Shown: positions 43,019 to 64,000 of the stretch, in pieces
How the letters are laid out: each line of letters opens with the position of its first letter
Numbering within the stretch: position 1 is the first letter of the stretch
Assembly: GCA_902777855.1 (NCBI GenBank)
Contig: CACYVN010000007.1
Location: 280,358 to 344,357 of the forward strand
Direction of reading: 5' to 3'
Source: an uncultured bacterium
Lineage (GTDB): Bacteria; Cyanobacteriota; Vampirovibrionia; Gastranaerophilales; Gastranaerophilaceae
Length of the DNA stretch: 64,000 nucleotides
The notes under the pieces: generated by a model
The model's database searches: none
Seen by the model: the letters and a program-made list of their open reading frames with translations, nothing else
What the model was told of the DNA's origin: nothing
Made by a program: the position numbers and the translations under genes

Positions 43019-43050
43019 GGATTGCCGCGCCCTATCGGGCTCGCAATGAC
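43019..43050. repeat. REP-like palindrome (GGATTGCC...GCAATGAC family)
   Basis: It starts GGATTGCCGCGCCC and ends GGGCTCGCAATGAC, forming a stem-loop. The same family recurs inside the adjacent giant gene (44175-44310). Confidence 0.7.
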
Positions 43051-43395: not shown

Positions 43396-46300
43396 ATGAG
43401 CAAAGACGATAAAAGACGAAATACTTGTAAAGATATTTCTAAAGATATCCTTAGCGATAAGGATACGGTTTTCGTGCCTTGCTCTGATTTATCCCGAAAG
43501 AAAAAGCCGAAAGTTTCTTCGTCCATTAAACAAAAGGCAGAACGTCATTCAGAGGCTCTGCCGAAGATTCAACGCTCCGCTCTGAATGACGGCAGAGCCG
43601 AAGAATCTAAATCGGGCAAGCCGTCTATTATGCAAAAGGCATTGAAGGTAGCGGCGATGTTTGCGTTGGCTGTAGGTACCGGAGCAATGAGTGCTGACAG
43701 TCAGGCGCAGGCGATGAGCAATGTTGCCAATGTACGCAGTGGTGCTGATATCGAGATGCAGGTTTTGCAGGAGCAGGACAAACGTCGCAGGTTCTTGTCG
43801 AACAAGAGTGGCACGAAGTTTACCAACCGGATTGTGCGCACCAATACGTTGCGGATAAATCCTGAGGTATTGAACGCTGTTCAAAACAGTATAGGTCAAA
43901 AAGACGGCATAATGCGTGATTTGGCTTTGCGTGCAAGCGAAGCAACCCTTGCGGAGTCAAATCCGTACCTGTACGGTTCAACTGTGGTTGAGGAATCTAT
44001 CTCCCCTTGGGGAGAAAAGAATTTCGATGCGAGCGAAGCGAGTGTCAGAAATTCAAGAGAGGGTAATGTTTCAGACCCTCTCCTGTCAACTTCGTTGACA
44101 TCCTCCCCCGAGGGAGGTAGAGGTGTCGTAGTCGGCATCAACAGTATAGAAACGATTGAAGTTGAAAGTAATATGTCATTGCGAGGAGTTGACGAAGTCA
44201 ACGACGCGGCAATCCATAATACTTATGACAGCCAAACTCAAACGGCTGGATTGCTTCACTCCGTTCGCAATGACATGAATGGTTATGCGGATACTGTCAT
44301 TGCGAGCGAAATTTTGCCCCCTGTAGAGGGGGAAATGGGTGATAGCCCAAAGGGGGGCAATAACACTCAACCCCCTACCCCGACTATGTCGGTACTTCCC
44401 CCTGCAAGCATGGGGCAGAGGTTATGGTGGCGTGGTGTTGCGACAGGTTTTGCGGCACCGGGGCCGAGTCCGACAGGGCATGTAAAATGGACTGAATCAG
44501 GCAGCAGTGCTGTTCCGTTCACGTTCAATTCAAAGACCGGTGTAGGTACAGGTACTATTCCTGTAACGATTAGTGGTGTTGTCCATTATTACACTTACAC
44601 TTATACAAGACCAAAAGGTGCTTTGGATGAAGGTACGGGTACAGGGGTAAAATATTATAAATGGGGTGATGATGGTTCAGGTAACAAGATACTTGTTGAT
44701 GCAACATCATCTGATTACGATATCATAGCGCATTATCACACCACAGCGGACGGATATACAGAAACCTCAACACGACTTGAAGACCCGACAGACAGTACAA
44801 CTTATAATAACAAAACATTTAATGGGGCGTATGTTTCCGGTTCCTACAAAAAAGGCGGTGCGTTGAGTTTCACAACTGCGGGAGATAGAGGTAACATCAT
44901 TGCAGACTTTGTCGGGAACTATATTAGTTCTACAGATGGCAGCAACTACGGCGGTGCGATTGCTAACTATATTAATAGTGCAGGTGCAAGTGCGACAATT
45001 GGTGATATCACGGGTGACTTCATCGGGAACTATATAACAGGTACAAGTAGCTACAACTACGGCGGTGCGATTTCTAACTATGCAAATAGTACAAATTCAA
45101 CTGTCACAATTGGAGATATCACGGGTGACTTCATCGGGAACCATATAACAGGTACTTACCGAAACTACGGCGGTGCGATTTCTAACCATCTAGAAAGTCC
45201 TGGAACTGCCACAATCGGGAATATCACGGGTGACTTCATCGGGAACTATATTAGTTCAACAGGTAGTTACAACTACGGCGGTGCGATTTCTAACTATGCA
45301 CAATTTACAGGTGCAACTGCCATAATTGGTGATATAAATGGCGACTTCATCGGGAACTATATAACAGGTACAAGTAGCTACAACTACGGCGGAGCGATTT
45401 CTAACTATGCAAATAGTGCAACTGCCACAATTGGAGATATCACAGGTGACTTCATCGGGAACTATATAAGTTCTACTGGAAACAACAACTACGGCGGTGC
45501 GATTTCTAACTATGCTAACAGTGGCGCAACTGCGACAATCTCAAGTATCACAGGTGACTTCATCGGGAACTATATTAGTGGTACAGGTGGCACCAACTAC
45601 GGCGGAGCGATTTCTAACTATGCATCTTCAGTTACTGCCATAATTGGGAATATCACCGGTGACTTCATCGGGAACTATATAAGTTCAAGTAGTAATACTA
45701 ACTACGGCGGTGCAATTTCTAACTATGCAAGTAGTTCAGCAACTGCGACAATCGGAGATATCACAGGTGACTTCATCGGGAACTATATTAATGCAAAGGG
45801 CTATAATACCCGTGGTGGTGCGATAGTTAACCAAAGGGCAGGGGCAAAGATTACATCACTCACCGGTGACTTCATAGGTAACTACATCAAACAGAATTAT
45901 ACATCGAATATTTCTAATACTTATGAAGGCACAATGGGCGGTGCGTTGTCCAATTATATTTACAATCAAACCGGCACGGCTGAATATGGCGATATAAAAG
46001 GTGATTTTATTGGCAACTATATCGATTCTGCTACAAACCAAAATTACGGCGGTGCGATTTCTAACTATGCATCAGGTACGAACGTAAGTGCCACAATCGG
46101 TGCTATCACAGGTGACTTCATCAATAACCATATAATAGGTACTGACCAAAACTACGGTGGTGCTATAGCAAATTATACGCAGAATCTTGGTGTTTCAAAA
46201 ATCGGTCAGATAACAGGTGATTTTATCAATAACTCAGTCACATCAACAGCAGGCAGTGCAATAGGTGGTGCTGTCTATAACAGCAGTGCTGTTATTGATA

Positions 46301-49300
46301 ACGTTGCTGACCGTCAGACATTTAATATAACAAAATACATTGCAATCAACGGTACAACAGGAGAAACGGTTGAATATTGGAATAATTCAAGTAAAACCAG
46401 TATGGATAATTATCTTGCACAAGGCAAAAAACTCGTTGTATCGTATAGCACTTCACTTCAGACGAATCGGTCAGAATCTCAATGGCAAACAATACTGGAT
46501 AATATAACAAGCGGCACTTACCTCACCTCTGACCCGACTAATGCACTCACACCTGAAAAAATTTGGACTCCTGAGTTTTCATCAGAAAATGCTATGAGTG
46601 TTAATGGTGATTTCACTAACAACTCTGTATCAGGTACGACAGAAGCCAAAGGCGGTGCGGTATTTAACGGTATGGTTATCAATAATGATGATAAATACTC
46701 TGTAACTGTTTATAAATATGTCGCAACAAGAGCCGAAACTGGCGAAACTATCACTTATTGGCTAGGCTCAGCGAAAAACAATATAGACTATAACCTGTCA
46801 AAAGGCAAAAAACTTGTTGTGATAAATTCAACCTCCGAGCAGCCAAATAGAACAGAATCTCAATGGACAACAATACTCAATAACATCGCCCAAGGATATT
46901 ATACAACTACTGACCCTGAAAGCGGCTTGACACCTGATGATTATTGGACAGAAGAATACGGCGGCTCTACAATCGCACTCTCAGGTGATTTTACAAACAA
47001 CAGCGCAACCGCAACCACAGGCGAAGCCCAAGGCGGTGCGATCCATAATGGAGGCGTAATCACTTCAATCACCGGTGACTTTATAAACAACAAAGCGACA
47101 TCAGAAAGCGGTACTGCATACGGCGGTGCGATCCATAATGGAGGCGTAATCACTTCAATCACCGGTGACTTTATAAACAACAAAGCGACATCAGAAAGCG
47201 GTACTGCATACGGTGGTGCTATCTACAACAGTGGTAACATGACCGTTACGGATTCAAATTTCTACAATAATAGTGCCCAACGTGGTGGTGCGATTTATAA
47301 TGGTGCAGGGAATTTGAATGTCTTTGCCAATACACAGGATGTTGCGTTCCAAAATAATACTTCAAGCGATATTGCCTCTGCCATAATGGTTTATGGTGCT
47401 GTCAATGTTGAAGGTAAAAACGGTCATGATATAGTATTCAAAAGCAATACCGCGGATGCTGCTTATGGTATTATGTATAACGGCGGAGTGGCAAGTATTA
47501 TTAACGGTCAGGTGTACAACAATAATACTGCTAAATGGGGCATAATACAGGATCAAGGTACTTCGCTTGCGCTTGTTGATACAAATTTTGGCTATAACAC
47601 ACAAAGTGATACAACATACGGTACTTCGGCGATTGCTTCAACCGGAACAAAAGTTGCAATTATAGCAGACAGTCGTGATGTTTCTTTCTATGGCAACAAA
47701 TCTCAAAATTATTATGATATTGGCAGTTCCGGGATATTAAACCTCAATGCTACAAGCGGTAAAACGTTGAGTTTTGGTGGTTCTGTTGAAAGTAGCGGAA
47801 CAGTAAACATCAATAGTACGGGCAACACTTATACAAAACTCGGTACGGATTACACTACATCCGAAGTTGCTATCACCCAAACCGGCGGGGAGTATGTCTT
47901 TGGCAATGCTCTGACAGGCGGAACGGTTAATCTTTATAACGGTGCAAATGTACGATTTGGCAATGTTCGTCAAACAGACGGCACAGTTTCTTATGGTACG
48001 TTTAACGGCTCTTTAACCAACGATGCAAACGGTGGGTATATCAATTTTGCTAATGGTTATGCCGAGGGTGGCGCAATACAACTTTATGGGCTTACTCTTG
48101 GTAGCGATATCAAAGCGGGTATGGATTATAACTTAGCCGCAAACACATCTGATGAATTTTGGCATCAGGGCGGTGCGTATCCTTCTCACAAAATTCTGAT
48201 TGACTATATCAACGCATTTAATCCAAACGCAAGTGAAACGGTTGGTACAACATACACCAAAAATATTGCGGATGATTACAAATCGTACCTTGCCTTATCA
48301 GACACTTTAAAAATCAACAGTGCGTATGAATGGGATGGGTACAGTGCAAGTTACGACAGTGCAACGGGCAACCTGACCTTGACCAAAGTCGCAACGGGCA
48401 CGGAAAACCTGTTCGGGTTCCTGCACAACAACGCTACCGCAACCACTTACACTATGAACCGTGATGAGCAGGCGCTTGTTGATATCGGCACAATGGCGGG
48501 TACCACAAAGACCGTCAATGCGCGCGGATACAACATCATCGGCAACCAGAACGCAGGCATTACGCTTGGCGAAGGTCAGACCTTAACCATCAACAACGCC
48601 AACGTCGAAGGGTTTTATAAAGATGGCAGTGCAGGATTTGCTCTTTTGAACGGTGGAAATTTAGATATTACCAATTCCACATTCCGCAATAATGTTGTTA
48701 CCGGTGATGGGGTTATATATGTTACAAACGGTTCTATCGCCAATATCATTGATTCAAGTTTTTATAATAACGGTTCACTTGGTACAAATTATCAGGGCGG
48801 GGTGTTCGCAACTGAATCCAGCTCTTTTTTAAACATCTTTGCTCAAACAAAAGATTCAATCTTTGACGGTAACTTTGGCAGTGAAGGTTCGGTTGTAAGA
48901 AATTATGGCACATTAAATATTGAAGGTCAAAACGGACACAAGGTAATATTTAGCAACAACAATGCTAATATTGACGGCACGTTATACAACGGCGGCGGCA
49001 ATATAAGTATTAAAAACGCAGAGTTTTTATACAACACATCCCGTGATACGGGCAATATTTATTCAAATGTCAATGTTGGCACAATCACGGTTGCTGACAC
49101 GTTGTTCAAGGGCAACACAGGATATTATGGCAGTGCAATTGACCTGCGTGGCGGCGGCGAAACTTTGACCGTTACAAATTCCACCTTTGAACACAACAGT
49201 ACAACAAACTATGGTGGTGCTATTTATAACGCAGGCACGGCAACAATTACTGGTTCAACATTTAACTACAACACTGCAGCTGAGGTTGGTGGAGCTATAT

Positions 49301-52300
49301 ATCATACCGGTGTTGCGCTCACTATTCGTGATAGTATATTTGAAAACAATACTTCTTCTGGTAGTGCCGGGGCATTGTTCACCAATGCAGGTACGATTAA
49401 TATTTATAATACTGTATTCCGCAACAATTCCGCATCCGGTCAGACCGGCGGATATTACAATAACGGTGCTACTGTTGAGAATTTGATAGCGGATTTTTAT
49501 AATAACAGTGGTGCTGCGGGTTCAGCAATACAGCACTGGAGGGGGTATATCGGCAACCTGCAAGGCACTTTTGATTCCAATCACGGTGGTGATATTGGTG
49601 CGATTTATGCCGGTATTGGTACGATAGATAGTATTTCCAATTCTGTTTTTTCTAATAACATTGCAAACGCAGTCGGTGGAGCGATTTATGTAGGTAGTAC
49701 TGAAGGTGCTACAATCAATACTATTGCTGATACTGTATTTTTAAACAACTCCGCACAACAGGGCGGTGCAATATATAATTCTGCAGGTGGTACAATCACC
49801 TCAATCGGTTCTGCAGGTGGGGTGACCTTCCAAGGTAACTATGCAAAATCTGACAGTAGCGGTGCTCTTGGTGGCGCTATCTATAATGCCGGCACAATTG
49901 GCGACATCACAGGTACATTTGAAGGTAACTATGTTGAATCTGAAAGCGGTCAAGCCCAAGGCGGTGCTATCTATAACGCACTTACCATTGGTAAATACGA
50001 TACAAACGGTGACCCTGTCGAAGGCAAAGGGATAATAAATTCCACGTTTAAAGGAAACTATATAAGTGGCTCATCTACAATATATGGTGGTGTCATCTAC
50101 AATGATACGAATGCAAAGATTAGCGCAATTACGGGTTCTGTGTTTGAAGGCAACTATGCTAAATCAACAAATGGTCCGGCATTGGGCGGGGTAGCGCAAA
50201 ACTACGGTGAAATCAATTCTTCCGGTAACACTTATACCGGCAACTATGTTTCATCTGATACAAATTGGTCAGGCGGTGGTGTTATCCGCAACTCTGGCAT
50301 ATTCGTATCAGATTCAGATACCTATACCGGAAACTATGTTTCAACAGTTCAAGTTTCTCAGGGCGGAGCTATCTACAATGACAGCAGTATAAGTATTTCA
50401 AACGGTAATTTCTCAGGTAACTATACCGAAGGCTATCATGCAGAAGGTGGTGCTGTCTGGAGTTATGGTTCCGGAGCGAATTCAATCACCAATACTGATT
50501 TTACAAACAACTATGCACAGGCTACAGGCGGCAATGCAAAAGGCGGTGCGATTACTGTAAGTCCGGATAATACAATAACCTCTATCACGGGTAACTTCAC
50601 CGGTAACTACGCAAAATCCGAAACCGGCAGAGCCTACGGTGGCGCTATATATAACGAAGGAACAATAAACAGTATTTCCGGGACTTTCAAAGATAACTAT
50701 GCGAAATCAGGAACAAGTTCTGCTGAGGGTGGTGTAATTCGTAATGTAGGTACTATTGGTTCTATCACTGGTACATTTATAAATAACTATGTAATATCTG
50801 ATGTGCATAATACTGCATATGGTGGTGTAATATATAACACTGGTACAATTGACAGTATCTCCGGTACTTTTAAGAATAATTATGCAGATTATGATGGTGG
50901 TGTAATTTGGAACCCGACAGGTGGCAGAATTAAATCAATAGCAGATTCTATTTTTGAAAATAATTCGACAAAAATGGATATTGGAGGCGGTGGTGCGATT
51001 TACAACTATGGAGGTACAATCGATTCAATAAGCAATGTTATTTTCAAAGGTAATGTTGCAGGTAATGATGCTGTTATTGCAAATAATGTCAATGGTACAA
51101 TTACTGAAATCAAAAATTCAACCTTTATAGATAATACTGCAGGCGGATATACTGCAGGTGTGGCTAACCACTCGGGTGTTGTTGGCTTTGTTGCTGATGG
51201 TGGTGATGTTGTATTCAAAAACAACAAATTAGGTAATGCTTATAAAGATATTTACAACTCGGGTACAATCCATCTCAATGCAAACACAGGTAACTCTATA
51301 TCCTTTGGCGGAGATATTGTGAGTGGTAGTTCCGGTACTTTAAATATCAATAATGGCTACAACAGTAGTGCAACAGGCGGGGATTACGTGTTCTACAACA
51401 CTGTTTCAGGTCAGACCATGAACCTTTATGATGGCGCAAGAGTCCTGATGCGTAATCTGAAACAGGCTGATAACACAACAAGTTACGGTCATTTAAACCT
51501 CACAGGCTTCACCTCTACCGGTACGGGCAATGTTCTTGATACCCAAAACGGTACGACTGAAAATGGCGGTATAAGTCTTGGTGCGGTTACTTTAAATAAC
51601 GATACGAATTTAAGACTTGATGTCAATACAAGCGAAGGACAATATGGTGACAAGTTCACTGGTACATGGTCTGGCGGAAGCGGAAGTTTCTTGGTTGATT
51701 CAATTACATTTAATGATAATCTGAATTATACTTCTGCGCTTATTGCCGATGACAATTTAAAAAGCCATATTGCAATGGCTACGACTTATCATGTTTATAA
51801 CGGGATTTACAAAGATAACTATACAGTAACATATAGCAACGGTTATTTGAATTTCATCCCAACTACAGGAACATACAACCTTGCCGGATTCCTCAAGACT
51901 GACACATCAGGCACGACGTATACGCTTGATAGTGACGAACCTATACTTGTCGACATCGGTAACATGGCGGGTAGCGGTAACACCAAAACCGTTAATGCAG
52001 GCAACTACGTTATTAGTGGTAATGAAAAAGCCGGTGTGACTGTTGGTGAAGGTCAAACCTTGAACATCAACGGCGGTACTTGGGATGGGTTTAAGAGCAA
52101 CTCCGGTGGTGCGATTTATAACAACGGCTCAAGTGCAAAGATAGAAAATATCACAAATTCCACCTTTGCCAACAACAGTGCACAGGGCGGTGGTGCGATT
52201 ATTAACTCCTACGGCACAATCTCAAACATCACAAATACCACCTTCACCAACAACAGTGCAAACGCCGGTGGTGCGATTATTATCCTCAGAGGCACGATTG

Positions 52301-55300: not shown

Positions 55301-58300
55301 GTGCTGTTGATAAAGATGTCACATTCAGCGGAAACTACGCTAACACCGAGGATAATTTAAACGATATTCACAATGAAGGCACTTTGACTCTGCGTGCGGC
55401 GCATGGCAGAACGATGAGTTTTGACGGTACGATTACCGATGCAGACACCCCGACAGGCACAATGAACATCGGTGATAGCGGGTACACGGGCAGAATCAAC
55501 TTTAACAACGACGTTACGCAGAGTGCAATCGTCTTTAACGGCGGCACGATGCACCTTGATAAGAATAATTCGCTGCATGTCGGCACCTTCACGGTTAACG
55601 GCTGCACGCTCGACCTTATCACAGGTGCAATAGAAACCCAAAACCTCGGCGCTTTGACACTCAATAGTGACCTCAAACTTGCTTTGGATGCTGATATTAC
55701 AGGTGGTGCGATTGGTACAGGCAGTTCAATTGGTGATAATCTTACCGCATCTACTGTCACGGGTTCGGGATCTGTGGTTGTTGATTCCGTCAGATTGTAT
55801 TCTGATATGACAGGTCTTGATACAGTAAAAATCAAGATTGTGGATGATGTTCTTAAAGCCAAAACGGGCGCAAATGTCACATCCGTAACCAATGCAGACG
55901 GCGATAAACTGTATAACTATACCATTGGGTATTCAAACGAAACCGACGGCGGGTATTTGACAATTGATTATAAATACGGATTGTATGATGCGGTTCACGA
56001 CACAGGCACAAGAACGTATAACATGCTATTTGACGAAATTGTCAGCCGGGATCTCGGCGGTATGGAAGGCGACGAACTGACCATTGAAGGGAACAATTTA
56101 TCCGTCAATGGCGGAGATTATGGCGGAATTACCGTCACAGACGGTCAAACTTTAACAGTTCAAAATGTCGGCTCACTTGACGGTACAGGTGCAGTTGTAA
56201 AATCGATTAACGGCTTCAGCACAACAGGCAACGGCGGATTTATCTCTAATGCAGGAACTTTGAACATCACAGACTCGGTATTGACCGGTAATAGTGCAAC
56301 AGGCAACGGCGGTGCAATATATAATAACGCAGGCACGATTACCATTAACGCAATCGGCGCTGATACATACTTCTACAACAACACCGCAGGCACGACTTAT
56401 AACGATATCTACAACTCCGGCACATCAACAGACAACCAAGGCGTTTTGAACCTCAATGCCGCAGCAGGGCAAAAAATCATCTTTAACGGTTCTGTTGCAG
56501 GTCAAGAAATCATGAACGGCGATAACGTTGTTGGTAACTACGGTATATTGAATATCAACAACGATTCGACAAACAAAGGCGGCGAATACATCTTTAACAG
56601 CGGACTTTATGGTACGTTGGAAATTCATAACGGTGCGATTATCAGACTCGGCAGTGCTGAACAACAAGACGGTTCTACAACCTACGGTGTGCTTCATCTG
56701 ACAGGTTTCCATCCTGTTACTGACGAAGGACTTACTCCGGATGAAGCTATCGTTACACTTGATTTGAGAAATAACCACATAGACACGCACCACTTCGGGC
56801 ATGTTATTCAGGGTGCTTCCGTTAACCATTTGCTTGATATTGATTTGGATAACCTGATAGGCGATAATTTTACTGCTGATTCTACTACCGCAATCACCGG
56901 CGACATCTTGGTTGGCGCACTCAACCTTATATCAGGTACCGGCGAAGAAGAAAAAATTGTCAAACTGTCTAAAAACTCGTTCAGATTTGCGTTCAGCTTG
57001 ACACCTGATATTTTGGATAAAGATGGTGATGTATATAAAAATATTACTTATGCAACTGGTGTTGATTATAAAGTCAAAACTCTTGATTATGACTACCTGA
57101 GCGGGAACTTGGTATTCAACGCAAAAGAATTTAATCCAAACGGCGGTACTTTAGACAAAGTTTACGCAACAAGCAGAGATTACCTGAAACTTGCAACAGG
57201 TGCTCATCATCAATATTCAAGCAGTGAGATTGTAGAAACAAGAGATGATGATCACCCTTATATTGTCGTTATCAATGGTCATGTTTATTATTTCAAACCG
57301 AATGAATCATCAGAAAAATTGAATAATTCAATCATTGACCTTGCTGCAACCGGTTCTACTGCGATTAAAGAAGTACGTTCAACGGATAACTATATATTTG
57401 AAAAAGACGGTCATTATTATACATATACTACAACCTTCCTGCCAAAATCAGTTTGGGAACACGATAAATATACCTCCGGACCTAATGCAGGTAAAGAAAC
57501 AGGAACCGAGACCAATTATAATTATCGCAATCCATTGGATGAACATCAATACCACAATATTAAAATGCGTACTGAATATATGAACGCAATCGATACGACT
57601 ACTTGGAATTCGTCAAATGCTACAACTGCCAAAAATTATTCTTGGGCGAATAATAATATTCCTCTTGCAAGTAATTACAAACCGAAAAATGATGATTATG
57701 GTAATTTGATCGGCGTAAGCGGTATGCTTCGTTTTAACCTTCCGCACAATGGTAATGGTACTGAAACAAAATATTATCTGTATGAATATACGATACCGAG
57801 CGATTATACAAGAAAAGATGCCGATGCCGATAGAATAGAAAGTTTGAGTGATAATATTACAAATCAGTATTTCTACCAGTTGTCTAACACCGGTTCAAAT
57901 GGTGGTGCAATATCTAACTCTGCTGCTGAAAATTATCATATCAATGTAGACTTTATCGGAAATAAAGGAAATAGTAAAACCGGTGATCATAATGGCGGTG
58001 GTGCTATTTTCAATACAAAAACCGGTAAATTGAGATTTGTCTCAGGTACATTTATAAATAACACTGCAATTCATGGCGGTGTTGTATTTAACGATGGCGA
58101 TCAGACCACGCACGGTGAGATAAAGGCATTGGTTGGTGATTTTATTGGGAATTCCTCCAATAAATCCGGCGGTGTGCTTAGAAATTATTACGGTAATATA
58201 GGCCTGATTCAGGGTAAATTCATTGGTAACAGAGCCGGTACTGGCGGCGATGGTTGGGGTGGCGTTATCTCTAATAAATTGGATAAAGGTGATACCAATG

Positions 58301-61300
58301 TAGAAAGAGCCACTATAGAAATTGTTTTGGGTGACTTTATCGGTAACTCGGCAAGTAAAGGTGGCGGCGCTATTGATATGAACGGCATGTTAGGTACCGT
58401 AATCGGTGACTTTATTGGTAATAGTGCACCGGGATATGACGGCGGCGGTGCAGTTCGTCTTGATGGCGGTTTTATCGGTGCTATCACAGGCGATTTTATA
58501 GGTAACTCAGGATATAAAGGCGGCGCAGTAGCTTCTCAATCAGGTACGGTAAGCACAATATATGGTGATTTCATCGGAAACAAGGCAACATCAGATAGTG
58601 GCGGTGCAATTTATAATGACAAGGGTACTTTTGACGCTATTTACGGTAAATTTATAAACAATACTGTAACTGCAAGCGGTAAAAACGGCGGTGCGATTTA
58701 TAATCAAGGCACAATAAACAGATTATCGGCTGATTTTATTGCAAATAGTACAACAGGTCAGGGTGGTGCGATTTATAATGATTCGGGTAAACAAATAAGT
58801 TTATATGCGGATGATATCGGTAATATTCTCTTTACAAACAACACTGCAGGCACGGGCGAAAATAAAACTTACAATGATATTTACAACGTAGGTAAGGTAT
58901 ATCTCAACGCCGGAACTTTCGTTGAAAGCGAAACAACAAAACGACGTACTATAACCTTTAACGGTACGATTACCGGTAATAGCGGTAACATTTATATCAA
59001 CAATGATTCCGAAGTCAAAGGCGGTAAGTATATCTTTAACAATGAAGTAAGTAATAACAAGGTTTACCTTTACAAAGGTGCGGATATCGAACTAAATTAT
59101 GCCGAACAGGAGGATGCAAACAGTACAAAAACCTACGGCTCACTATCTTTGGCAGGTTTGGAGGTTGATTCTGTTGCGGGTACAAAAATTACTTCCCAAA
59201 ATAGCCACATTGAAGCTAACACTCTCGGTGCGGTTAAATTGGGCAGCAATGTTACCCTCGCTATTGATGCAGCTCTGAACGGTGCAACTCAGGCTGACCG
59301 GGCAGATAACTACAGTGCAACATCAATTACAAGCGGCTCAACCAAGTTTGTAATTGATAACATCATTGTTAATGCAGATTCAACAAAGAATTACACCAAA
59401 GCAACCGTCGCAAACAATACATTGAAATCACGCTTTGACACAAAAGACTCGGCAATTCTTACCGCAACCAATGCAACAGATGTAACAGGCACATATATAG
59501 CAAAATACATTGCAGACGGCGGATATTTGGTATTCTCAAATGAAAGTGCAAAAAATCTTGTCACTGTCGCACGTAACGAATACGGATTTGAAGATGCAAC
59601 AAGAACTTATACTCTCGGCCCGAATGATGAAGATATCGCAACAGACCTTGCAAACTATGGCGACACTTCTAAGGGTACAACATCTATTGCTGCAATATCA
59701 GATGCCGGTGCAAATGTTACCATTGACGGTACAACAACCCACCGCTACGGTATCAACGGCGGCTCTAAAGGCGGAATAACCGTTGCAAGCGGTCAAACCT
59801 TAACTGTTCAAAACGTTGGCTCACTTGACAGTGAGGGCGCAATCGTTAAATCAATCAACGGCTTCAGCAGTACAAACGGCGGATTTGTTGACAACTCAGG
59901 TACTTTGAATATTACCGATTCTGTATTCAGCGGCAACAGCGCTACAAATAGGGGCGGTGCAATTTACAACACTGCAAACGCTTCAATCAACGCTATCGGT
60001 GCAGATACATATTTCTATAACAACACCGCAGGTACGGCTTACAACGATATCTACAATACAGGCACAATTGCACTCAATGCCGCAACAGATAAAAACATCG
60101 TATTTAACGGCTCATTTACAGGTAATAACGGAACGTTGAATATTAATCAGGATTCAACAAACAAAGGCGGAAAGTATATCTTTAATAACACCGTATCTGA
60201 TAATACATTGAACCTTTACAATGGTGCGAATATCAAACTCGGCACAGCCGTTCAGGCAAATTCTACAACTTCTAACGGCAGATTAAATATAGTTGCTCTG
60301 ACTAATGATGCAAACGGTGGCATTATTAATACTCAAAACGGCAACATTGAATACGGAAGTGCTGGCAGGCACTATTTTGGGGATGCTACATTAGGTAGTG
60401 ATTTGACTCTCAAAATTGATGCGGATTTGTCAGCAGCAAATAAAGATAATCGTGCTGATACCTTCAATGCAGCTTCTGTTGCTGATGGTACAACAAAATT
60501 TGTTGTTGATTCGATACTTGTAAGTGCTGATTCCAATACTCAATATACAAAAGCACTTTTGGGTGCTTCCAATAACATAAAATCACGTATGGGTCTGAGC
60601 TCGGAAATTCTTGATGTAACATCAGGAACGGGTGTTACAAATACATATCAGGCTAAATATGATTCCGGTACCGGATATTTGATATTCAACAACGCCATGA
60701 CAACAAATATTGTTGATCAAACCCGTAACGAGTATGGTTTCTATAATGATGCAAGAACATATAACTTGACCGCAGACGAAGATGTCGCAACAGACCTTGC
60801 AAACTATGGCGACACTTCTAAGGGTACAACATCTATTGGTGCATTGCAGGGAACATCGCTCACTATCGCAGGTGATGGGGTTCATTCTATTAACGGTTCA
60901 AAGACTGTTGAAGAAGTTACAACAAGTTATGGCGGAATAAGTGTTAGCAACGGTCAAACTTTGACAGTCCGTGATGTCGGTTCTGTTACTTATCAAACTT
61001 CCGGTGGCAAGAATGTTTATACATTTGATGATGACGGAAAAGTTAACAATATAACCGTGAATAGTTCAATAAACGGATTTAACACTAACTTTATGACTTT
61101 AGGTGCAGGTGCCAACGCACTTGTTGATAATGTAGTTTTCTATAACAATTCAAAAACCGACAGTGGTAGTGCGATTAAAAATAATCAGGGTACAATAACA
61201 TCAATTGATGCTGATTTTATCGGCAATGTTGTAAATTATAACGGCGGTGTATGGGGCAAGGTTTATGGCGGTGCGATTTATAACTCTACTGGCGCAGATT

Positions 61301-64000
61301 CAGTTGCCAGAATAGACAGTATTACAGGTAACTTTATTAATAACATTGCTAATAGAACCGGTGATGGACCGGCCGGCGGCGGTGCAATATTGAACTATGG
61401 TGAAATAGGTTCAATAAGCGGTGATTTTGTTTCTAACACTTCAAAGAATAATGGTGGTGCAATATACAACGGAAAATATGAATATTCATCCGGAAATTAT
61501 GCTGTTGGAAGTATAGAATCAGTATCCGGAAGATTCATTAATAACCATGCCGAAGGCTCCGGTGGTGCTATCATGAACCAAGCTGGTGAAATTACAATAG
61601 TTGATGCGGAATTTACCGGCAATACTGCCAATAGTTCAGGTGGTGCTATTTACAATAATGGCGGTGGCATGATACTAAACATAAATGCCGTCAACGGTAA
61701 TGTTACTTTCACGAACAACACTGCAGGTACGGGCGAAAATATAACTTACAATGATATTTATAACGCAAGTACCGTTAATCTTAATGCAGGCACTTATGTT
61801 GAAAGCGAACAGACAAAACAACGTTCAATAGTATTTAACGGTAAGATTAATGGCAATAATAACGGCATATTGAATTTGGGCAGCCATGCAACAATAAACG
61901 GCGGAATTTATCAGTTTAATAACGAGGTTAATAATCATTCGTTTAATCTGTATAATAATGCAGTTATAAAACTTGGCTCTCATGTTCAGGAAGATTCAAG
62001 TACTTCTTATGGGAAAATTTCTTCGAGCCATTTTACAAATGACACAACCGGCGGTACAATTGATACCCAGAACAATAATATTGACTCAAACAGCCTTGGT
62101 ACAGTCACTTTGAACAGTGATTTGACTTATAAAATTGATGTTTCTTTGAGTGATTTGCAATCAGATTTGTTAAGCGCAAATTCTTTGACTGCAACAACTA
62201 ATAATATTGTTATAGATAATATCAAAATTCTAACTGACGGAGTTGGTGAAACAAGAATTACAAATAACAAACTGTGGAATAATACGAAACTTTCTGATGA
62301 TATTTTGGCATCTGATTATCTGACATCCGAAACGGGTGTACGTTATAAAATTGGTACCAAAAAAGTTACAACCGGAACAACAGGTTTGTATTTAACTGCA
62401 GATTATTACCGTTTATATGATGCGGTACATTCAACCGCAAATAGCAGAACTTATACAATCCCGACTACATTCTTGGATGCAAATAATCAGGAAGTTGTTG
62501 ACCGCAACCTTGGCGTTATGGGCGGTACAGGTGCAAGTTTAACAATTGACGGCGGTTCAACCAATAAGTACGGTATCAACGGCTATGACGAAAGCACAGA
62601 TACTCACTACAGCGGTATAACCGTCCAGGATGGTCAAAGTTTGACCGTTCAAAATGTCGGTTCAATGAGCGGCTCAACTGTTGAAAAATCCGTAACAGGC
62701 TTTGTAAGTGAAAATGGCGGATTTATCAACAACAGCGGAACAACAGCTCTGACAAGTTCGGTATTCAGTGGTAACAATGCAATAAACGGTGGTGTTCTCT
62801 ATAACAATACAGGAACATCTACTTTGACAGGTTCTACGTTCAGCGGTAACACTGCAACAACTGCCGGTGGCGCAATATACAACAATACAGGCGCAACACT
62901 TGTTTTGAGCGGAACAAATACATTTACAAATAACACTGCAAATTCTGTTGCAAATGATATTTACAACCTCGGAACTATAACACTTTCAGATTCTTCAACA
63001 ACAAACATCGGAAGTGGAATTTCCGGTTTAAACGGCGCAATAAATATGGGTGATGAGGCTGTATTGAATGTTAATGCTCTGATTGGCGGAAATACAATTT
63101 CATTGAGCAATTCTACTATCAACATCGGTACTGGTACACTCAATTTAACAGGTTTGGCTAACGATGCAAACGGCGGTTTGATTGATGCCCAAAATAGCCA
63201 CATTGATACTGATAACAATTTCGGTGCGGTTACTTTGGGCAGCAATTTGACCTACAGAATGGATGTTAACGCAACCGCATTGACATCAGACCTGCTGAGT
63301 GCAACATCGTTAGCTGAAACCACAAATATTATCAATATTGACAATATCAACTTTATAGGTGATATGTCAAACAAAGACAAGATAAGAATTGCCAACAATG
63401 TATTAATGAATAATGTTGAACTTGACAGTTCGCTGACTTCAACATACTACATTGCAAACAGTATTCGTTATAAACTTGACACCGTAAAGGTTACAACCGG
63501 TGAACCTGATGTTCAGGGCTTGTATTTGACTTCAAGTTATTACAGACTGGCTGATGCTGTCAAAGCAACTGCAAATGACAGAAGTTATACAATCACTCCT
63601 GACAGTGGTAAAACTTATGAAACCGTTGATAGGGATTTGAGCACAATGGGCGGCACAGGTGCAAGTCTTACTGTTGACGGCGGTACTAATAAATATGGTA
63701 TAAATGTTGACGGCAAAACAGGTATAACCGTTGCAGGCGGTCAAACACTTACATTACAAAATATCGGTACATACACTCAGATAAAAGATACAAATAATAA
63801 AGTTATTGATATTTCATTCTCTGAAAGTGACAATGCAATATTTGGTCAAACAGGCGCCAGCTTTATTAACAATATTGGTACTTTGAATGTATCTGATGTT
63901 GTATTCGCAAATAATTTAAGTGCTTCAATGCCGTTCATTTACACCAGTACAGACGGTACAGCAGATATTGATAATGTCGTAATGGTAAATAATATCAATT
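43396..64000 (+). CDS. Giant Pmp-like beta-helix surface protein, 5' part (at least 6,868 residues, open at the window end)
   Basis: The frame is open without a stop from ATG 43396 to the end of the window. After about 75 charged residues, a hydrophobic stretch (residues 83-97, with MFALAVGTGAMSA) looks like an export signal with a long N-terminal extension. Residues 50-330 are encoded partly by REP-like palindromes. From residue 500 on the chain repeats GGAI/GGAV with YN or SN and FxxN or FIGNY motifs, the signature of chlamydial polymorphic membrane proteins. Seven module heads of the type RTY...MGGTGASL...GITV..GQTLTVQNVGS recur at about 48394, 51868, 55981, 59572, 60721, 62407 and 63541. 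Two non-repeat insertions stand out (46319-46970 and about 57000-57890). There is no stop and no C-terminal beta-barrel in view. It was probably displayed on the outer surface as an adhesin; no function is proven. Confidence 0.85.
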   Translation, partial: MSKDDKRRNTCKDISKDILSDKDTVFVPCSDLSRKKKPKVSSSIKQKAERHSEALPKIQRSALNDGRAEESKSGKPSIMQKALKVAAMFALAVGTGAMSADSQAQAMSNVANVRSGADIEMQVLQEQDKRRRFLSNKSGTKFTNRIVRTNTLRINPEVLNAVQNSIGQKDGIMRDLALRASEATLAESNPYLYGSTVVEESISPWGEKNFDASEASVRNSREGNVSDPLLSTSLTSSPEGGRGVVVGINSIETIEVESNMSLRGVDEVNDAAIHNTYDSQTQTAGLLHSVRNDMNGYADTVIASEILPPVEGEMGDSPKGGNNTQPPTPTMSVLPPASMGQRLWWRGVATGFAAPGPSPTGHVKWTESGSSAVPFTFNSKTGVGTGTIPVTISGVVHYYTYTYTRPKGALDEGTGTGVKYYKWGDDGSGNKILVDATSSDYDIIAHYHTTADGYTETSTRLEDPTDSTTYNNKTFNGAYVSGSYKKGGALSFTTAGDRGNIIADFVGNYISSTDGSNYGGAIANYINSAGASATIGDITGDFIGNYITGTSSYNYGGAISNYANSTNSTVTIGDITGDFIGNHITGTYRNYGGAISNHLESPGTATIGNITGDFIGNYISSTGSYNYGGAISNYAQFTGATAIIGDINGDFIGNYITGTSSYNYGGAISNYANSATATIGDITGDFIGNYISSTGNNNYGGAISNYANSGATATISSITGDFIGNYISGTGGTNYGGAISNYASSVTAIIGNITGDFIGNYISSSSNTNYGGAISNYASSSATATIGDITGDFIGNYINAKGYNTRGGAIVNQRAGAKITSLTGDFIGNYIKQNYTSNISNTYEGTMGGALSNYIYNQTGTAEYGDIKGDFIGNYIDSATNQNYGGAISNYASGTNVSATIGAITGDFINNHIIGTDQNYGGAIANYTQNLGVSKIGQITGDFINNSVTSTAGSAIGGAVYNSSAVIDNVADRQTFNITKYIAINGTTGETVEYWNNSSKTSMDNYLAQGKKLVVSYSTSLQTNRSESQWQTILDNITSGTYLTSDPTNALTPEKIWTPEFSSENAMSVNGDFTNNSVSGTTEAKGGAVFNGMVINNDDKYSVTVYKYVATRAETGETITYWLGSAKNNIDYNLSKGKKLVVINSTSEQPNRTESQWTTILNNIAQGYYTTTDPESGLTPDDYWTEEYGGSTIALSGDFTNNSATATTGEAQGGAIHNGGVITSITGDFINNKATSESGTAYGGAIHNGGVITSITGDFINNKATSESGTAYGGAIYNSGNMTVTDSNFYNNSAQRGGAIYNGAGNLNVFANTQDVAFQNNTSSDIASAIMVYGAVNVEGKNGHDIVFKSNTADAAYGIMYNGGVASIINGQVYNNNTAKWGIIQDQGTSLALVDTNFGYNTQSDTTYGTSAIASTGTKVAIIADSRDVSFYGNKSQNYYDIGSSGILNLNATSGKTLSFGGSVESSGTVNINSTGNTYTKLGTDYTTSEVAITQTGGEYVFGNALTGGTVNLYNGANVRFGNVRQTDGTVSYGTFNGSLTNDANGGYINFANGYAEGGAIQLYGLTLGSDIKAGMDYNLAANTSDEFWHQGGAYPSHKILIDYINAFNPNASETVGTTYTKNIADDYKSYLALSDTLKINSAYEWDGYSASYDSATGNLTLTKVATGTENLFGFLHNNATATTYTMNRDEQALVDIGTMAGTTKTVNARGYNIIGNQNAGITLGEGQTLTINNANVEGFYKDGSAGFALLNGGNLDITNSTFRNNVVTGDGVIYVTNGSIANIIDSSFYNNGSLGTNYQGGVFATESSSFLNIFAQTKDSIFDGNFGSEGSVVRNYGTLNIEGQNGHKVIFSNNNANIDGTLYNGGGNISIKNAEFLYNTSRDTGNIYSNVNVGTITVADTLFKGNTGYYGSAIDLRGGGETLTVTNSTFEHNSTTNYGGAIYNAGTATITGSTFNYNTAAEVGGAIYHTGVALTIRDSIFENNTSSGSAGALFTNAGTINIYNTVFRNNSASGQTGGYYNNGATVENLIADFYNNSGAAGSAIQHWRGYIGNLQGTFDSNHGGDIGAIYAGIGTIDSISNSVFSNNIANAVGGAIYVGSTEGATINTIADTVFLNNSAQQGGAIYNSAGGTITSIGSAGGVTFQGNYAKSDSSGALGGAIYNAGTIGDITGTFEGNYVESESGQAQGGAIYNALTIGKYDTNGDPVEGKGIINSTFKGNYISGSSTIYGGVIYNDTNAKISAITGSVFEGNYAKSTNGPALGGVAQNYGEINSSGNTYTGNYVSSDTNWSGGGVIRNSGIFVSDSDTYTGNYVSTVQVSQGGAIYNDSSISISNGNFSGNYTEGYHAEGGAVWSYGSGANSITNTDFTNNYAQATGGNAKGGAITVSPDNTITSITGNFTGNYAKSETGRAYGGAIYNEGTINSISGTFKDNYAKSGTSSAEGGVIRNVGTIGSITGTFINNYVISDVHNTAYGGVIYNTGTIDSISGTFKNNYADYDGGVIWNPTGGRIKSIADSIFENNSTKMDIGGGGAIYNYGGTIDSISNVIFKGNVAGNDAVIANNVNGTITEIKNSTFIDNTAGGYTAGVANHSGVVGFVADGGDVVFKNNKLGNAYKDIYNSGTIHLNANTGNSISFGGDIVSGSSGTLNINNGYNSSATGGDYVFYNTVSGQTMNLYDGARVLMRNLKQADNTTSYGHLNLTGFTSTGTGNVLDTQNGTTENGGISLGAVTLNNDTNLRLDVNTSEGQYGDKFTGTWSGGSGSFLVDSITFNDNLNYTSALIADDNLKSHIAMATTYHVYNGIYKDNYTVTYSNGYLNFIPTTGTYNLAGFLKTDTSGTTYTLDSDEPILVDIGNMAGSGNTKTVNAGNYVISGNEKAGVTVGEGQTLNINGGTWDGFKSNSGGAIYNNGSSAKIENITNSTFANNSAQGGGAIINSYGTISNITNTTFTNNSANAGGAIIILRGTIGNITNSTFTNNSAISEGGAIEIFKGTIGNITNSTFANNSVSGKGGALYNKDGTITINATGGDVTFNNNTAGTNGGAIYIEDGSLTINATGGDVKFTNNTAGSNGGAIYNAGTLSITTANDHKVTFENNTAQQGAGIYNTGTITTIGSADNHVLFKGNYSGGNGSGLNNQLGSITTVYADFVSNHTNAYGGAMRSSGTLGTLIANFTDNYATADRNVTSGALHLAGSTGTVGTIIADFTRNYVNAGSSSGAYAYGGAWVNNGQHIGSVSGKYTDNYAKSESGTAYGGAIYNQSAGTVDNIGDQATTTFTGNYAITSGTNAHGGGLYNGGKIGDIVADFDGNYAITSGTNAYGGGLYNGGKIGDIVADFTGNYAKSTGEFKAGAGDAVISGDTDDNKGSGRAYGGAIFNLARVTKDGDGNITGVVEHTGEINSIQGDFKDNYVYSENGYALGGAIYNEYGTIGSIGTSTNKSLFQNNSAEAKKAIYGGILVNQFGTIGDIYADFTGNTVYVHDANASSGTGAEGIIYNNASMGNLTGDFSNNTVTSDGYGYGVIVNKSEKTGVEANIGVITGNFTNNVIRSGYYGYGGAIMNYAVSNMEKTAIEGIVGNFTDNGMVVEQNVGSYSVNNGYGGAITNEPYTNNTAEIGYIHGDFTRNYVIAPNRAQGGAINNADVKRSAPTVGLIGEIIGDFTGNYVQGGGEALGGAISNKATITTIGATDDHSQFSGNKATSTDGVAHGGAIYNEGSITNIYADFENNTANATGTHLGLGGAIYNSGTITTIGSAEHKATFEGNSASGKTGGGAIAVAANGEISHIYADFIGNTLTSAESTVGGGAIWRGSGTSIIGDITGNFINNSITSYSNAYGGALEGSGSITSITGNFIDNSATSTNGFVQGGAINQNSGSIGTIGTDGGGYKFQNNTAIAKGYAVGGAIYNQGTITNIYADFENNSSISENSRAHGGAIYNTGTMTNIQADFTGNYVKSVSGQALGGAIYNKGYVTISAVDKDVTFSGNYANTEDNLNDIHNEGTLTLRAAHGRTMSFDGTITDADTPTGTMNIGDSGYTGRINFNNDVTQSAIVFNGGTMHLDKNNSLHVGTFTVNGCTLDLITGAIETQNLGALTLNSDLKLALDADITGGAIGTGSSIGDNLTASTVTGSGSVVVDSVRLYSDMTGLDTVKIKIVDDVLKAKTGANVTSVTNADGDKLYNYTIGYSNETDGGYLTIDYKYGLYDAVHDTGTRTYNMLFDEIVSRDLGGMEGDELTIEGNNLSVNGGDYGGITVTDGQTLTVQNVGSLDGTGAVVKSINGFSTTGNGGFISNAGTLNITDSVLTGNSATGNGGAIYNNAGTITINAIGADTYFYNNTAGTTYNDIYNSGTSTDNQGVLNLNAAAGQKIIFNGSVAGQEIMNGDNVVGNYGILNINNDSTNKGGEYIFNSGLYGTLEIHNGAIIRLGSAEQQDGSTTYGVLHLTGFHPVTDEGLTPDEAIVTLDLRNNHIDTHHFGHVIQGASVNHLLDIDLDNLIGDNFTADSTTAITGDILVGALNLISGTGEEEKIVKLSKNSFRFAFSLTPDILDKDGDVYKNITYATGVDYKVKTLDYDYLSGNLVFNAKEFNPNGGTLDKVYATSRDYLKLATGAHHQYSSSEIVETRDDDHPYIVVINGHVYYFKPNESSEKLNNSIIDLAATGSTAIKEVRSTDNYIFEKDGHYYTYTTTFLPKSVWEHDKYTSGPNAGKETGTETNYNYRNPLDEHQYHNIKMRTEYMNAIDTTTWNSSNATTAKNYSWANNNIPLASNYKPKNDDYGNLIGVSGMLRFNLPHNGNGTETKYYLYEYTIPSDYTRKDADADRIESLSDNITNQYFYQLSNTGSNGGAISNSAAENYHINVDFIGNKGNSKTGDHNGGGAIFNTKTGKLRFVSGTFINNTAIHGGVVFNDGDQTTHGEIKALVGDFIGNSSNKSGGVLRNYYGNIGLIQGKFIGNRAGTGGDGWGGVISNKLDKGDTNVERATIEIVLGDFIGNSASKGGGAIDMNGMLGTVIGDFIGNSAPGYDGGGAVRLDGGFIGAITGDFIGNSGYKGGAVASQSGTVSTIYGDFIGNKATSDSGGAIYNDKGTFDAIYGKFINNTVTASGKNGGAIYNQGTINRLSADFIANSTTGQGGAIYNDSGKQISLYADDIGNILFTNNTAGTGENKTYNDIYNVGKVYLNAGTFVESETTKRRTITFNGTITGNSGNIYINNDSEVKGGKYIFNNEVSNNKVYLYKGADIELNYAEQEDANSTKTYGSLSLAGLEVDSVAGTKITSQNSHIEANTLGAVKLGSNVTLAIDAALNGATQADRADNYSATSITSGSTKFVIDNIIVNADSTKNYTKATVANNTLKSRFDTKDSAILTATNATDVTGTYIAKYIADGGYLVFSNESAKNLVTVARNEYGFEDATRTYTLGPNDEDIATDLANYGDTSKGTTSIAAISDAGANVTIDGTTTHRYGINGGSKGGITVASGQTLTVQNVGSLDSEGAIVKSINGFSSTNGGFVDNSGTLNITDSVFSGNSATNRGGAIYNTANASINAIGADTYFYNNTAGTAYNDIYNTGTIALNAATDKNIVFNGSFTGNNGTLNINQDSTNKGGKYIFNNTVSDNTLNLYNGANIKLGTAVQANSTTSNGRLNIVALTNDANGGIINTQNGNIEYGSAGRHYFGDATLGSDLTLKIDADLSAANKDNRADTFNAASVADGTTKFVVDSILVSADSNTQYTKALLGASNNIKSRMGLSSEILDVTSGTGVTNTYQAKYDSGTGYLIFNNAMTTNIVDQTRNEYGFYNDARTYNLTADEDVATDLANYGDTSKGTTSIGALQGTSLTIAGDGVHSINGSKTVEEVTTSYGGISVSNGQTLTVRDVGSVTYQTSGGKNVYTFDDDGKVNNITVNSSINGFNTNFMTLGAGANALVDNVVFYNNSKTDSGSAIKNNQGTITSIDADFIGNVVNYNGGVWGKVYGGAIYNSTGADSVARIDSITGNFINNIANRTGDGPAGGGAILNYGEIGSISGDFVSNTSKNNGGAIYNGKYEYSSGNYAVGSIESVSGRFINNHAEGSGGAIMNQAGEITIVDAEFTGNTANSSGGAIYNNGGGMILNINAVNGNVTFTNNTAGTGENITYNDIYNASTVNLNAGTYVESEQTKQRSIVFNGKINGNNNGILNLGSHATINGGIYQFNNEVNNHSFNLYNNAVIKLGSHVQEDSSTSYGKISSSHFTNDTTGGTIDTQNNNIDSNSLGTVTLNSDLTYKIDVSLSDLQSDLLSANSLTATTNNIVIDNIKILTDGVGETRITNNKLWNNTKLSDDILASDYLTSETGVRYKIGTKKVTTGTTGLYLTADYYRLYDAVHSTANSRTYTIPTTFLDANNQEVVDRNLGVMGGTGASLTIDGGSTNKYGINGYDESTDTHYSGITVQDGQSLTVQNVGSMSGSTVEKSVTGFVSENGGFINNSGTTALTSSVFSGNNAINGGVLYNNTGTSTLTGSTFSGNTATTAGGAIYNNTGATLVLSGTNTFTNNTANSVANDIYNLGTITLSDSSTTNIGSGISGLNGAINMGDEAVLNVNALIGGNTISLSNSTINIGTGTLNLTGLANDANGGLIDAQNSHIDTDNNFGAVTLGSNLTYRMDVNATALTSDLLSATSLAETTNIINIDNINFIGDMSNKDKIRIANNVLMNNVELDSSLTSTYYIANSIRYKLDTVKVTTGEPDVQGLYLTSSYYRLADAVKATANDRSYTITPDSGKTYETVDRDLSTMGGTGASLTVDGGTNKYGINVDGKTGITVAGGQTLTLQNIGTYTQIKDTNNKVIDISFSESDNAIFGQTGASFINNIGTLNVSDVVFANNLSASMPFIYTSTDGTADIDNVVMVNNIN
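43543..43606. repeat. In-frame palindrome 1 (CGTCATTCAGAG arms)
   Basis: CGTCATTCAGAG (43543-43554) is the exact inverse of 43580-43591. GGCTCTGCC and its inverse GGCAGAGCC follow each arm, each with a GAAGA(A)TTC-like tail. Confidence 0.7.
44001..44117. repeat. In-frame palindrome 2 (four small hairpins)
   Basis: Stems: CTCCCC/GGGGAG (44001-44014), GAGAGGGT/ACCCTCTC (44057-44082), TGTCAAC/GTTGACA (44084-44100) and CCTCCC/GGGAGG (44102-44117). Confidence 0.65.
44175..44274. repeat. In-frame REP-like pair (GTCATTGCGAG...GCAATGAC)
   Basis: GTCATTGCGAGG (44175-44186), GTTGAC/GTCAAC (44188-44102+100, i.e. 44188-44193 with 44197-44202), GGCAATCC (44208-44215) and an inverted copy GGATTGC...TCGCAATGAC (44248-44274) form an opposed pair. 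The 43019-43050 intergenic palindrome is the same family. Confidence 0.7.
44296..44362. repeat. In-frame palindrome 3 (GTCATTGCGAGCG plus CCCCCT/AGGGGG)
   Basis: It starts with a third GTCATTGCGAGCG copy, then CCCCCTgtagAGGGGG and a second G-rich arm. The reading frame continues through it. Confidence 0.55.
44905..46230 (+). repeat. About 13 tandem 105-111 bp (35-37 residue) repeats in the giant gene
   Basis: GACTTCATCGGGAACTAT-type units start at 44905, 45016, 45127, 45232, 45343, 45448, 45556, 45661, 45772, 45868, 46003, 46111 and 46219. Each encodes DFIGNYI, then NYGGAISNYA and ATIGDIT. Units remain very similar in DNA, so recombination could change copy number. Confidence 0.85.
47032..47211 (+). 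repeat. Perfect 90-bp tandem duplication
   Basis: 47032-47121 and 47122-47211 are identical. Each encodes one 30-residue coil starting GGAIHNGGVITSITG. Confidence 0.9.
53224..53403 (+). repeat. Near-perfect 90-bp tandem duplication
   Basis: GGAAACTATGCTATCACAAG starts at 53224 and 53314. The two units differ mostly at a few silent sites. Confidence 0.85.
59636..60838 (+). repeat. 54-bp identical repeats in two module heads
   Basis: 59636-59689 and 60785-60838 are identical (offset 1,149 bp, 383 codons). They encode ATDLANYGDTSKGTTSI. Confidence 0.85.

What the first reader, a model, noticed from the sequence alone, without database searches (positions are those of the whole stretch)
43396..64000. 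A single giant reading frame of at least 6,868 residues, Pmp-like, still open at the window end
Seen: no in-frame stop over 20.6 kb. Known: GGA[ILV] and FxxN repeats define chlamydial polymorphic membrane proteins. Inference: a giant adhesin in a gut cyanobacterial relative, far larger than chlamydial Pmps. Ordinary ORF callers could drop it because it has no stop in the window.
Basis: partly seen in the sequence, partly recalled or inferred. Interest (0 to 1): 0.8.

Follow-up and report, generated by a model that had tools for sequence, protein, structure and literature searches.

The report
Giant tandem-unit autotransporter surface protein
A gut bacterium related to cyanobacteria carries an unbroken gene for a surface protein of at least 8,438 amino acids, built like many copies of a pertactin-type exported protein in a row, most likely on one outer-membrane pore; proteins of this type normally have only one such unit.

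Summary
The frame is real: from ATG 43396 it has no stop to the window end (6,868 codons) and stays open to the contig end (8,438 codons). Pmp motifs GGA[ILV] and FxxN are far above chance, but it is not a chlamydial Pmp: the Pmp middle domain is absent and such motifs are known outside Chlamydia. A ~290-residue module recurs 10 times on this contig (8 in the window). AlphaFold models from window sequence alone match autotransporter passengers; the module matches their C-terminal, autochaperone-bearing ends (EspC, EspP, pertactin, Z about 14). Complete homologues (991 to 6,178 aa) show the plan: signal peptide, beta-helix units each ending in this module, then a TIGR01414 barrel, usually with a lysine-rich tail. 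The probable 3' end of this gene is on contig C15 (four modules, barrel, tail); the join is likely, not shown. Best reading: a type Va autotransporter whose passenger is a chain of about 14 pertactin-like units, each with its own autochaperone-like folding nucleus. The barrel family is almost confined to one family of the phylum. New variant of a known kind; the adhesin role is inferred.

The parts
43396..64000 (+). Giant open reading frame, 6,868 codons in the window, 8,438 to the contig end (C7:349066), no stop
43633..43719 (+). Probable signal-peptide core behind an ~80-residue N-terminal extension (KALKVAAMFALAVGTGAMSADSQAQA)
   Evidence: hydropathy peak at residue 85; complete homologues start with clear signal-peptide-like sequences; no dedicated predictor was run
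43543..43606 (.). Palindromic repeat-like DNA read in frame within the N-terminal extension
   Evidence: inverted repeats I1/I2
44173..44306 (.). Interspersed palindromic repeat (TCATTGCGAG ... GCGGCAATCC ... TCGCAATGACAT) read in frame; an intergenic copy lies at 43019-43049
44383..47715 (+). Unit 1 beta-helix (19 GGA[ILV], 23 FxxN)
   Evidence: tandem DNA repeats in it
47716..48675 (+). Module 1: autochaperone-like part (47716-48384) plus N-cap of next unit (48400-48675)
51247..52152 (+). Module 2: autochaperone-like part (51247-51861) plus N-cap
55363..56172 (+). Module 3: autochaperone-like part (55363-55971) plus N-cap
56434..57207 (+). Module 4: autochaperone-like part (56434-57123), no recognisable N-cap
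58876..59820 (+). Module 5: autochaperone-like part (58876-59541) plus N-cap
60046..60981 (+). Module 6: autochaperone-like part (60046-60693) plus N-cap
61753..62661 (+). Module 7: autochaperone-like part (61753-62409) plus N-cap; modelled alone (aa 6110-6430)
62956..63768 (+). Module 8: autochaperone-like part (62956-63540) plus N-cap
60946..62685 (+). Unit 7 stretch (aa 5851-6430) folded by AlphaFold2: beta-helix plus module, mean pLDDT 85.9, pTM 0.85

Best explanation
This is a giant type Va (classical) autotransporter of the outer membrane. A signal peptide would send the chain through Sec, and a C-terminal autotransporter barrel (on contig C15, very probably the end of the same gene) would anchor it and let the passenger out. 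The passenger is not one long beta-helix. It is a chain of about 14 passenger units: an N-cap, a beta-helix of 75 to 1,100 residues carrying the Pmp-type GGA[ILV]/FxxN rungs (sparse or absent in the C15 units), and a ~210-residue end piece with the fold of the autochaperone-bearing end of pertactin or EspP. Inferred mechanism: the barrel-proximal end piece folds first outside the cell, as in known autotransporters; each further end piece restarts folding for its own unit, so a passenger of 8,000-11,000 residues can be drawn out step by step. The product would be a stalk of roughly 130-180 nm (inferred from about 30 residues and 0.48 nm per rung) showing variable loops, most likely for adhesion or cell-cell contact. 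Shown: frame, modules, predicted fold, module order and the barrel in homologues. Inferred: the C7-C15 join, export, stepwise folding, adhesion.
For: Frame open 8,438 codons. Ten full modules on C7 and four on C15. Two models from window sequence only: unit 7 matches pertactin best (VIA Z 19.8 and 19.0, rmsd 3.6 and 3.1 A, 379 and 347 residues); [quoted passage not shown] IcsA autochaperone 3ml3 8.4), while most unrelated beta-helices score Z 6-8. In most complete homologues the last strong copy stops at the same point and leads into the barrel, whereas C7 and C15 internal copies run on into an N-cap. A 991-aa homologue has a single copy before its barrel. The barrel matches TIGR01414 in 22 of 25 members, best E 1.2e-14. 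Single-contig homologues of 6,178, 5,242, 5,227, 4,825, 4,810 and 4,808 aa with barrels. Internal copies of C7 form their own branch and most terminal copies form another.
Against: The barrel is not on the window's contig. C15_end and C7_start share a unique 86-bp overlap, which together with a C7_end-C15_start join would close a 382-kb circle. Foldseek E-values are weak (best 6e-3 and 2e-2) and the modules have no Pfam autochaperone match, so relation to known autochaperones rests on predicted fold and position only. In G009 and G050 the final copy is missed or weak. The close relative G016 has this gene in broken frames. No expression or surface data.
Confidence: 0.72

Rival explanations
1. 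It is a true member of the chlamydial Pmp family, enlarged in a gut cyanobacterial relative.
For: PF02415 and TIGR01376 above cut-off; GGA/FxxN pairing with 24-38 residue spacing as in Pmp rungs; homologues carry a barrel.
Against: No PF07548 middle domain in the parts scanned; PF03797 in only 1 of 25 barrels; C15 has no GGA[ILV] at all; the motif is a recurrent beta-helix rung type in bacteria, archaea and a protist (PMC10715098).
Confidence: 0.05
2. The window gene and the C15 barrel gene are two different genes; the window gene ends elsewhere (on a masked or missing contig) with its own barrel, or is a 3'-truncated relic.
For: 86-bp unique overlap of C15_end with C7_start; contigs C26-C31 (2.0-2.5 kb) read only N and could hold missing parts.
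Against: The genome has one barrel match and one full N-terminus match. At the unmasked contig edges examined, the only other long repeat-rich open frames of this kind, C13_end and C19_start, pair with each other by content. C7 ends in a helix after an N-cap and C15 starts 45 residues before a module, so a join fits the unit order. The first C15 copy is sister to a C7 copy. G002 and G004 show the same split: N-terminal part running off one contig, barrel part entering another.
Confidence: 0.22
3. Assembly artefact: repeats mis-joined into one frame that does not exist.
For: Metagenome-type assembly broken in repeats; tandem DNA repeats in unit 1; a frame change in the lysine-rich tail of C15.
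Against: A chance open frame is excluded; homologues of 4,800-6,178 aa are complete on single contigs in other genomes; synonymous-type substitution pattern against relatives. Exact copy number could still be wrong.
Confidence: 0.05

Closest known systems
Classical autotransporters (type Va) with beta-helical passenger: pertactin, EspP, EspC, Hbp, IcsA
   Same: Beta-helix passenger; an end piece with the autochaperone-bearing fold just before a C-terminal TIGR01414-type barrel; signal peptide
   Different: About 14 copies of the end piece instead of one; passenger 8,000 residues or more; Pmp-type rungs; a lysine-rich tail of about 20-470 residues after the barrel in most homologues
Chlamydial polymorphic membrane proteins (Pmp)
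   Same: GGA[ILV]/FxxN rungs in a beta-helix; autotransporter plan
   Different: No PF07548 middle domain found; barrel not recognised by PF03797; far larger; repeated end pieces (PMC10715098, PMC11166332)
Giant non-autotransporter surface proteins, e.g. SiiE of Salmonella, the 7,651-residue Mobiluncus adhesin, Apilactobacillus Giant1-5
   Same: Very long surface proteins, mostly repetitive (PMC6272769, PMC10619420, PMC12863079)
   Different: Immunoglobulin-like repeats in the first two, and other secretion routes, not a beta-helix chain on its own barrel

Membership tests
Type Va autotransporter | N-terminal Sec signal peptide | tested here: inconclusive
   Hydrophobic core at residues ~85-99 followed by AQA, but behind an 80-residue extension; clear in complete homologues; no predictor run
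Type Va autotransporter | Beta-helical passenger | tested here: met
   Model pLDDT 85.9, best match pertactin Z 19.8 and 19.0
Type Va autotransporter | Autochaperone-type end of the passenger before the barrel | tested here: met
   Module alone matches C-terminal passenger ends of EspC, EspP, pertactin, SepA, Hbp, Hap, Ag43, IcsA; a copy lies just before the barrel in C15 and most complete homologues. Fold and position only, no function test
Type Va autotransporter | C-terminal beta-barrel in the same polypeptide | tested here: inconclusive
   Present in the C15 frame and in complete homologues (TIGR01414 in 22 of 25); the window frame itself ends at the contig edge before any barrel
Chlamydial Pmp | GGA[ILV] and FxxN repeats (PF02415, TIGR01376) | tested here: met
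Chlamydial Pmp | Pmp middle domain PF07548 | tested here: not met
   No match in the window and C7 parts (E up to 0.01), in C15 or in homologues G050 and G018 (E up to 0.1)
Chlamydial Pmp | PF03797 autotransporter domain | tested here: not met
   Own genome none at E up to 1; 1 of 25 related barrels
Two-partner secretion (type Vb) exoprotein | N-terminal TPS (haemagglutination activity) domain | tested here: not met
   First 1,000 residues match no Pfam family at E up to 0.01

The most novel reading that the evidence does not exclude
A type Va passenger made of ten to fourteen or more tandem passenger units, each closed by its own autochaperone-like nucleus, is a modular way to secrete and fold proteins of about 1 MDa through one barrel, and is a family-wide invention of gut Cyanobacteriota relatives, with a lysine-rich periplasmic tail as a second new part.
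Probability: 0.55. Interest if true: 0.75.

Novelty: new variant of a known kind. Interest (0 to 1): 0.6.

Why it matters
Autochaperones are described as a single element near the barrel that is needed for secretion and folding of the passenger (PMC5767081). A protein with many such ends in line would allow a direct test of whether they act as local folding nuclei or ratchets, and how long a passenger one barrel can export. It also points to a large, poorly annotated surface protein family in gut and rumen relatives of cyanobacteria: 141 of 386 genomes sampled across the phylum carry the barrel, 140 of them in one family, often several copies per genome. No held paper mentions autotransporters together with Gastranaerophilales, and the only one pairing them with Melainabacteria has one passing mention of each.

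Tried and rejected
PF03797 search of the own genome: nothing; the barrel was found by following repeat similarity to C15. Sequence searches of barrel and module profiles against the PDB: only chance-level hits. Pfam on the modules: only scattered chance hits. Foldseek against viral structures: nothing significant. Neighbour-gene linkage as proof of the C7-C15 join: permease and nucleotidase share a contig in G009, G046, G023 and G060 at 5-49 kb, but no other neighbours are shared and this many could be chance, so given little weight.

Full report
Observation. The frame starts at ATG 43396 (TTG 43348 is possible) and has no stop to base 64000. The genome search places the window at C7:280358-344357 of a 1.94-Mb, 31-contig, 99.5% complete genome. 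C7 ends at 349066 and the frame is still open, so 8,438 codons are seen (876 kDa). The chance of such a run at this composition is about 10^-198 for the window part alone, and the other five frames are full of stops. Comparison with relatives shows substitutions concentrated at third codon positions, strongly in the barrel and more weakly in the N-terminal part.

What the sequence is made of. Pmp-type motifs are dense: 81 GGA[ILV] and 145 FxxN on C7 against shuffled means of 2.3 and 31. PF02415 and TIGR01376 score above their cut-offs. GGA motifs are mostly spaced 24-38 residues, and FxxN precedes GGA by 8-15 residues, as expected of beta-helix rungs. It has no meaningful Pfam or PDB match by sequence.

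Fold. Two AlphaFold2 models were made from window sequence only, using the protein's own repeats as the alignment. The unit aa 5851-6430 gave mean pLDDT 85.9 and pTM 0.85. VIA-align ranks pertactin first (2iou_G Z 19.8, rmsd 3.6 A, 379 residues; 1dab Z 19.0, 3.1 A, 347 residues), then other beta-helices. The module alone (aa 6110-6430, pLDDT 82.9) gives classical autotransporter passengers in the first 11 places, with model residues 1 or 2 to about 228 on the C-terminal end of each passenger: EspC 14.2, EspP 14.0, pertactin 13.8, SepA 13.8, Hbp 12.8, Hap 12.5, Ag43 12.1, IcsA 11.7, Ssp 10.9. The isolated IcsA autochaperone region (3ml3) scores 8.4, and most other beta-helices fall to 6-8. Foldseek's own E-values were weak, so this is a fold-level match, not proven homology. 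Published autochaperone positions (PMC5767081) lie inside the matched ends for IcsA and EspP.

Order of parts. Splitting the module profile at the structural boundary gives an autochaperone-like part (209 positions) and an N-cap part (83 positions). On C7 and C15 every full internal copy but one (module 4) is followed by an N-cap; the copy before the barrel on C15 is not. Most complete homologues show the same: the last strong copy ends at that point and the barrel follows; G009 and G050 are exceptions where the last copy is missed or weak. A 991-residue homologue (G018, on L177) has one copy and one barrel, the ordinary autotransporter plan. So the giant reads as repeated passenger units in front of one barrel. 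In a tree of 54 copies, seven of nine terminal copies form one group (support 0.94) and the other two pair; most C7 copies form their own branch, as expected from duplication within this gene.

The missing end. C15 opens inside a 3,094-residue frame: repeats, four modules, a barrel (L036:7106-7891) and a lysine-rich tail. The barrel matches TIGR01414 in 22 of 25 relatives, its own copy at E 2e-10. This is probably the end of the window gene. The genome has one such barrel and one such N-terminus. At the unmasked contig edges examined, the only other long repeat-rich open frames of this kind, C13_end and C19_start, belong together. The parts fit the unit order across the gap, and G002 and G004 show the same split. 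Against this, C15_end and C7_start share a unique 86-bp overlap, which would close a circle with the proposed join. Six small contigs are masked. I put the join at about 0.75. If right, the protein exceeds 11,500 residues.

Relatives. Barrel relatives occur in 44 of 46 genomes of the genus, up to 13 matches each, and in 141 of 386 genomes sampled over the phylum, 140 in the same family and one elsewhere in the order. Complete frames of 4,808-6,178 residues on single contigs show that the size class is not an assembly accident. The window's frame is the longest seen among the listed matches. The N-terminal part is narrower: 6 of 46 genomes of the genus have any match, three of them besides the window's own (G002, G016, G004) the clear ones. 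G004 corresponds to the rumen MAG RUG12020, judged from an identical contig number, length and match. A LdpA homologue upstream supports a cyanobacterial relative; the exact taxon was not tested.

Tail. Classical autotransporters end at the last barrel strand (general knowledge). Here most of 39 distinct relatives carry a lysine-rich tail of about 20-470 residues, 22 of them with a [KR]x[VI]IKx[LI]-type motif. It should lie in the periplasm; a wall or periplasmic anchor is a guess.

What it is not. It is not filed as a chlamydial Pmp: PF07548 and PF03797 were not met, and the motifs are known outside Chlamydia (PMC10715098). It is not type Vb, since no TPS domain was found. Papers held here describe single autochaperones; none found describes repeated ones, with the caveat that subscription papers are missing and that abstracts and counts, not full texts, were checked for most.

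Verdict. The frame is real, the Pmp label is a resemblance of rungs, and the more interesting fact is the repeated autochaperone-like unit. Export, stepwise folding and adhesion are inferences that need experiments.

Noticed in passing
window 43543-43606 and 44173-44306: Interspersed palindromic repeats are read in frame inside the N-terminal extension, recalling Rickettsia palindromic elements; residues ~193-310 also match many short places with little open frame in G000, G004 and G016.
   Followed up: partly
L168:4114-16000 (C13 end) and L169:2-4039 (C19 start): A second family of large repeat proteins in three tandem copies (1,255, 1,523 and a third broken across two contigs), with shared C-termini (AGAxFxNxD...LLYLNxLL) and no barrel seen.
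   Followed up: no
L036:7892-9286: Lysine/proline-rich tail after the barrel with repeated TRTKM motifs; it changes frame near 9270, while in relative G002 it runs intact to a stop.
   Followed up: partly
L036:9954-27000 versus L132, L133, L136, L138: The segment next to the barrel is inverted or rearranged between close relatives, suggesting a recombination-prone site beside the giant gene.
   Followed up: no
L131:12880-13070 and L107:1-86: A dispersed repeat beside tRNA-Ser, plus an 86-bp unique overlap between C15 end and C7 start, in conflict with a simple C7-C15 join.
   Followed up: partly
L134:1-10662 (G016:C22): In close relative G016 the orthologous gene is split into several frames, so it is decayed or misassembled there.
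   Followed up: no
window 34936-35880: Homologue of LdpA, a cyanobacterial circadian-clock iron-sulphur protein, in what is probably a non-photosynthetic gut genome.
   Followed up: no
L120 (C21 start) and L148 (C9 end): A very acidic repeat frame (VENTPEVEDIEEPEE...) at the edge of C21; C9's end shares 59 bp with it.
   Followed up: no
window 8393-12889: A 1,498-residue frame on the minus strand with only weak similarity (21% over 700 residues) in G060.
   Followed up: no
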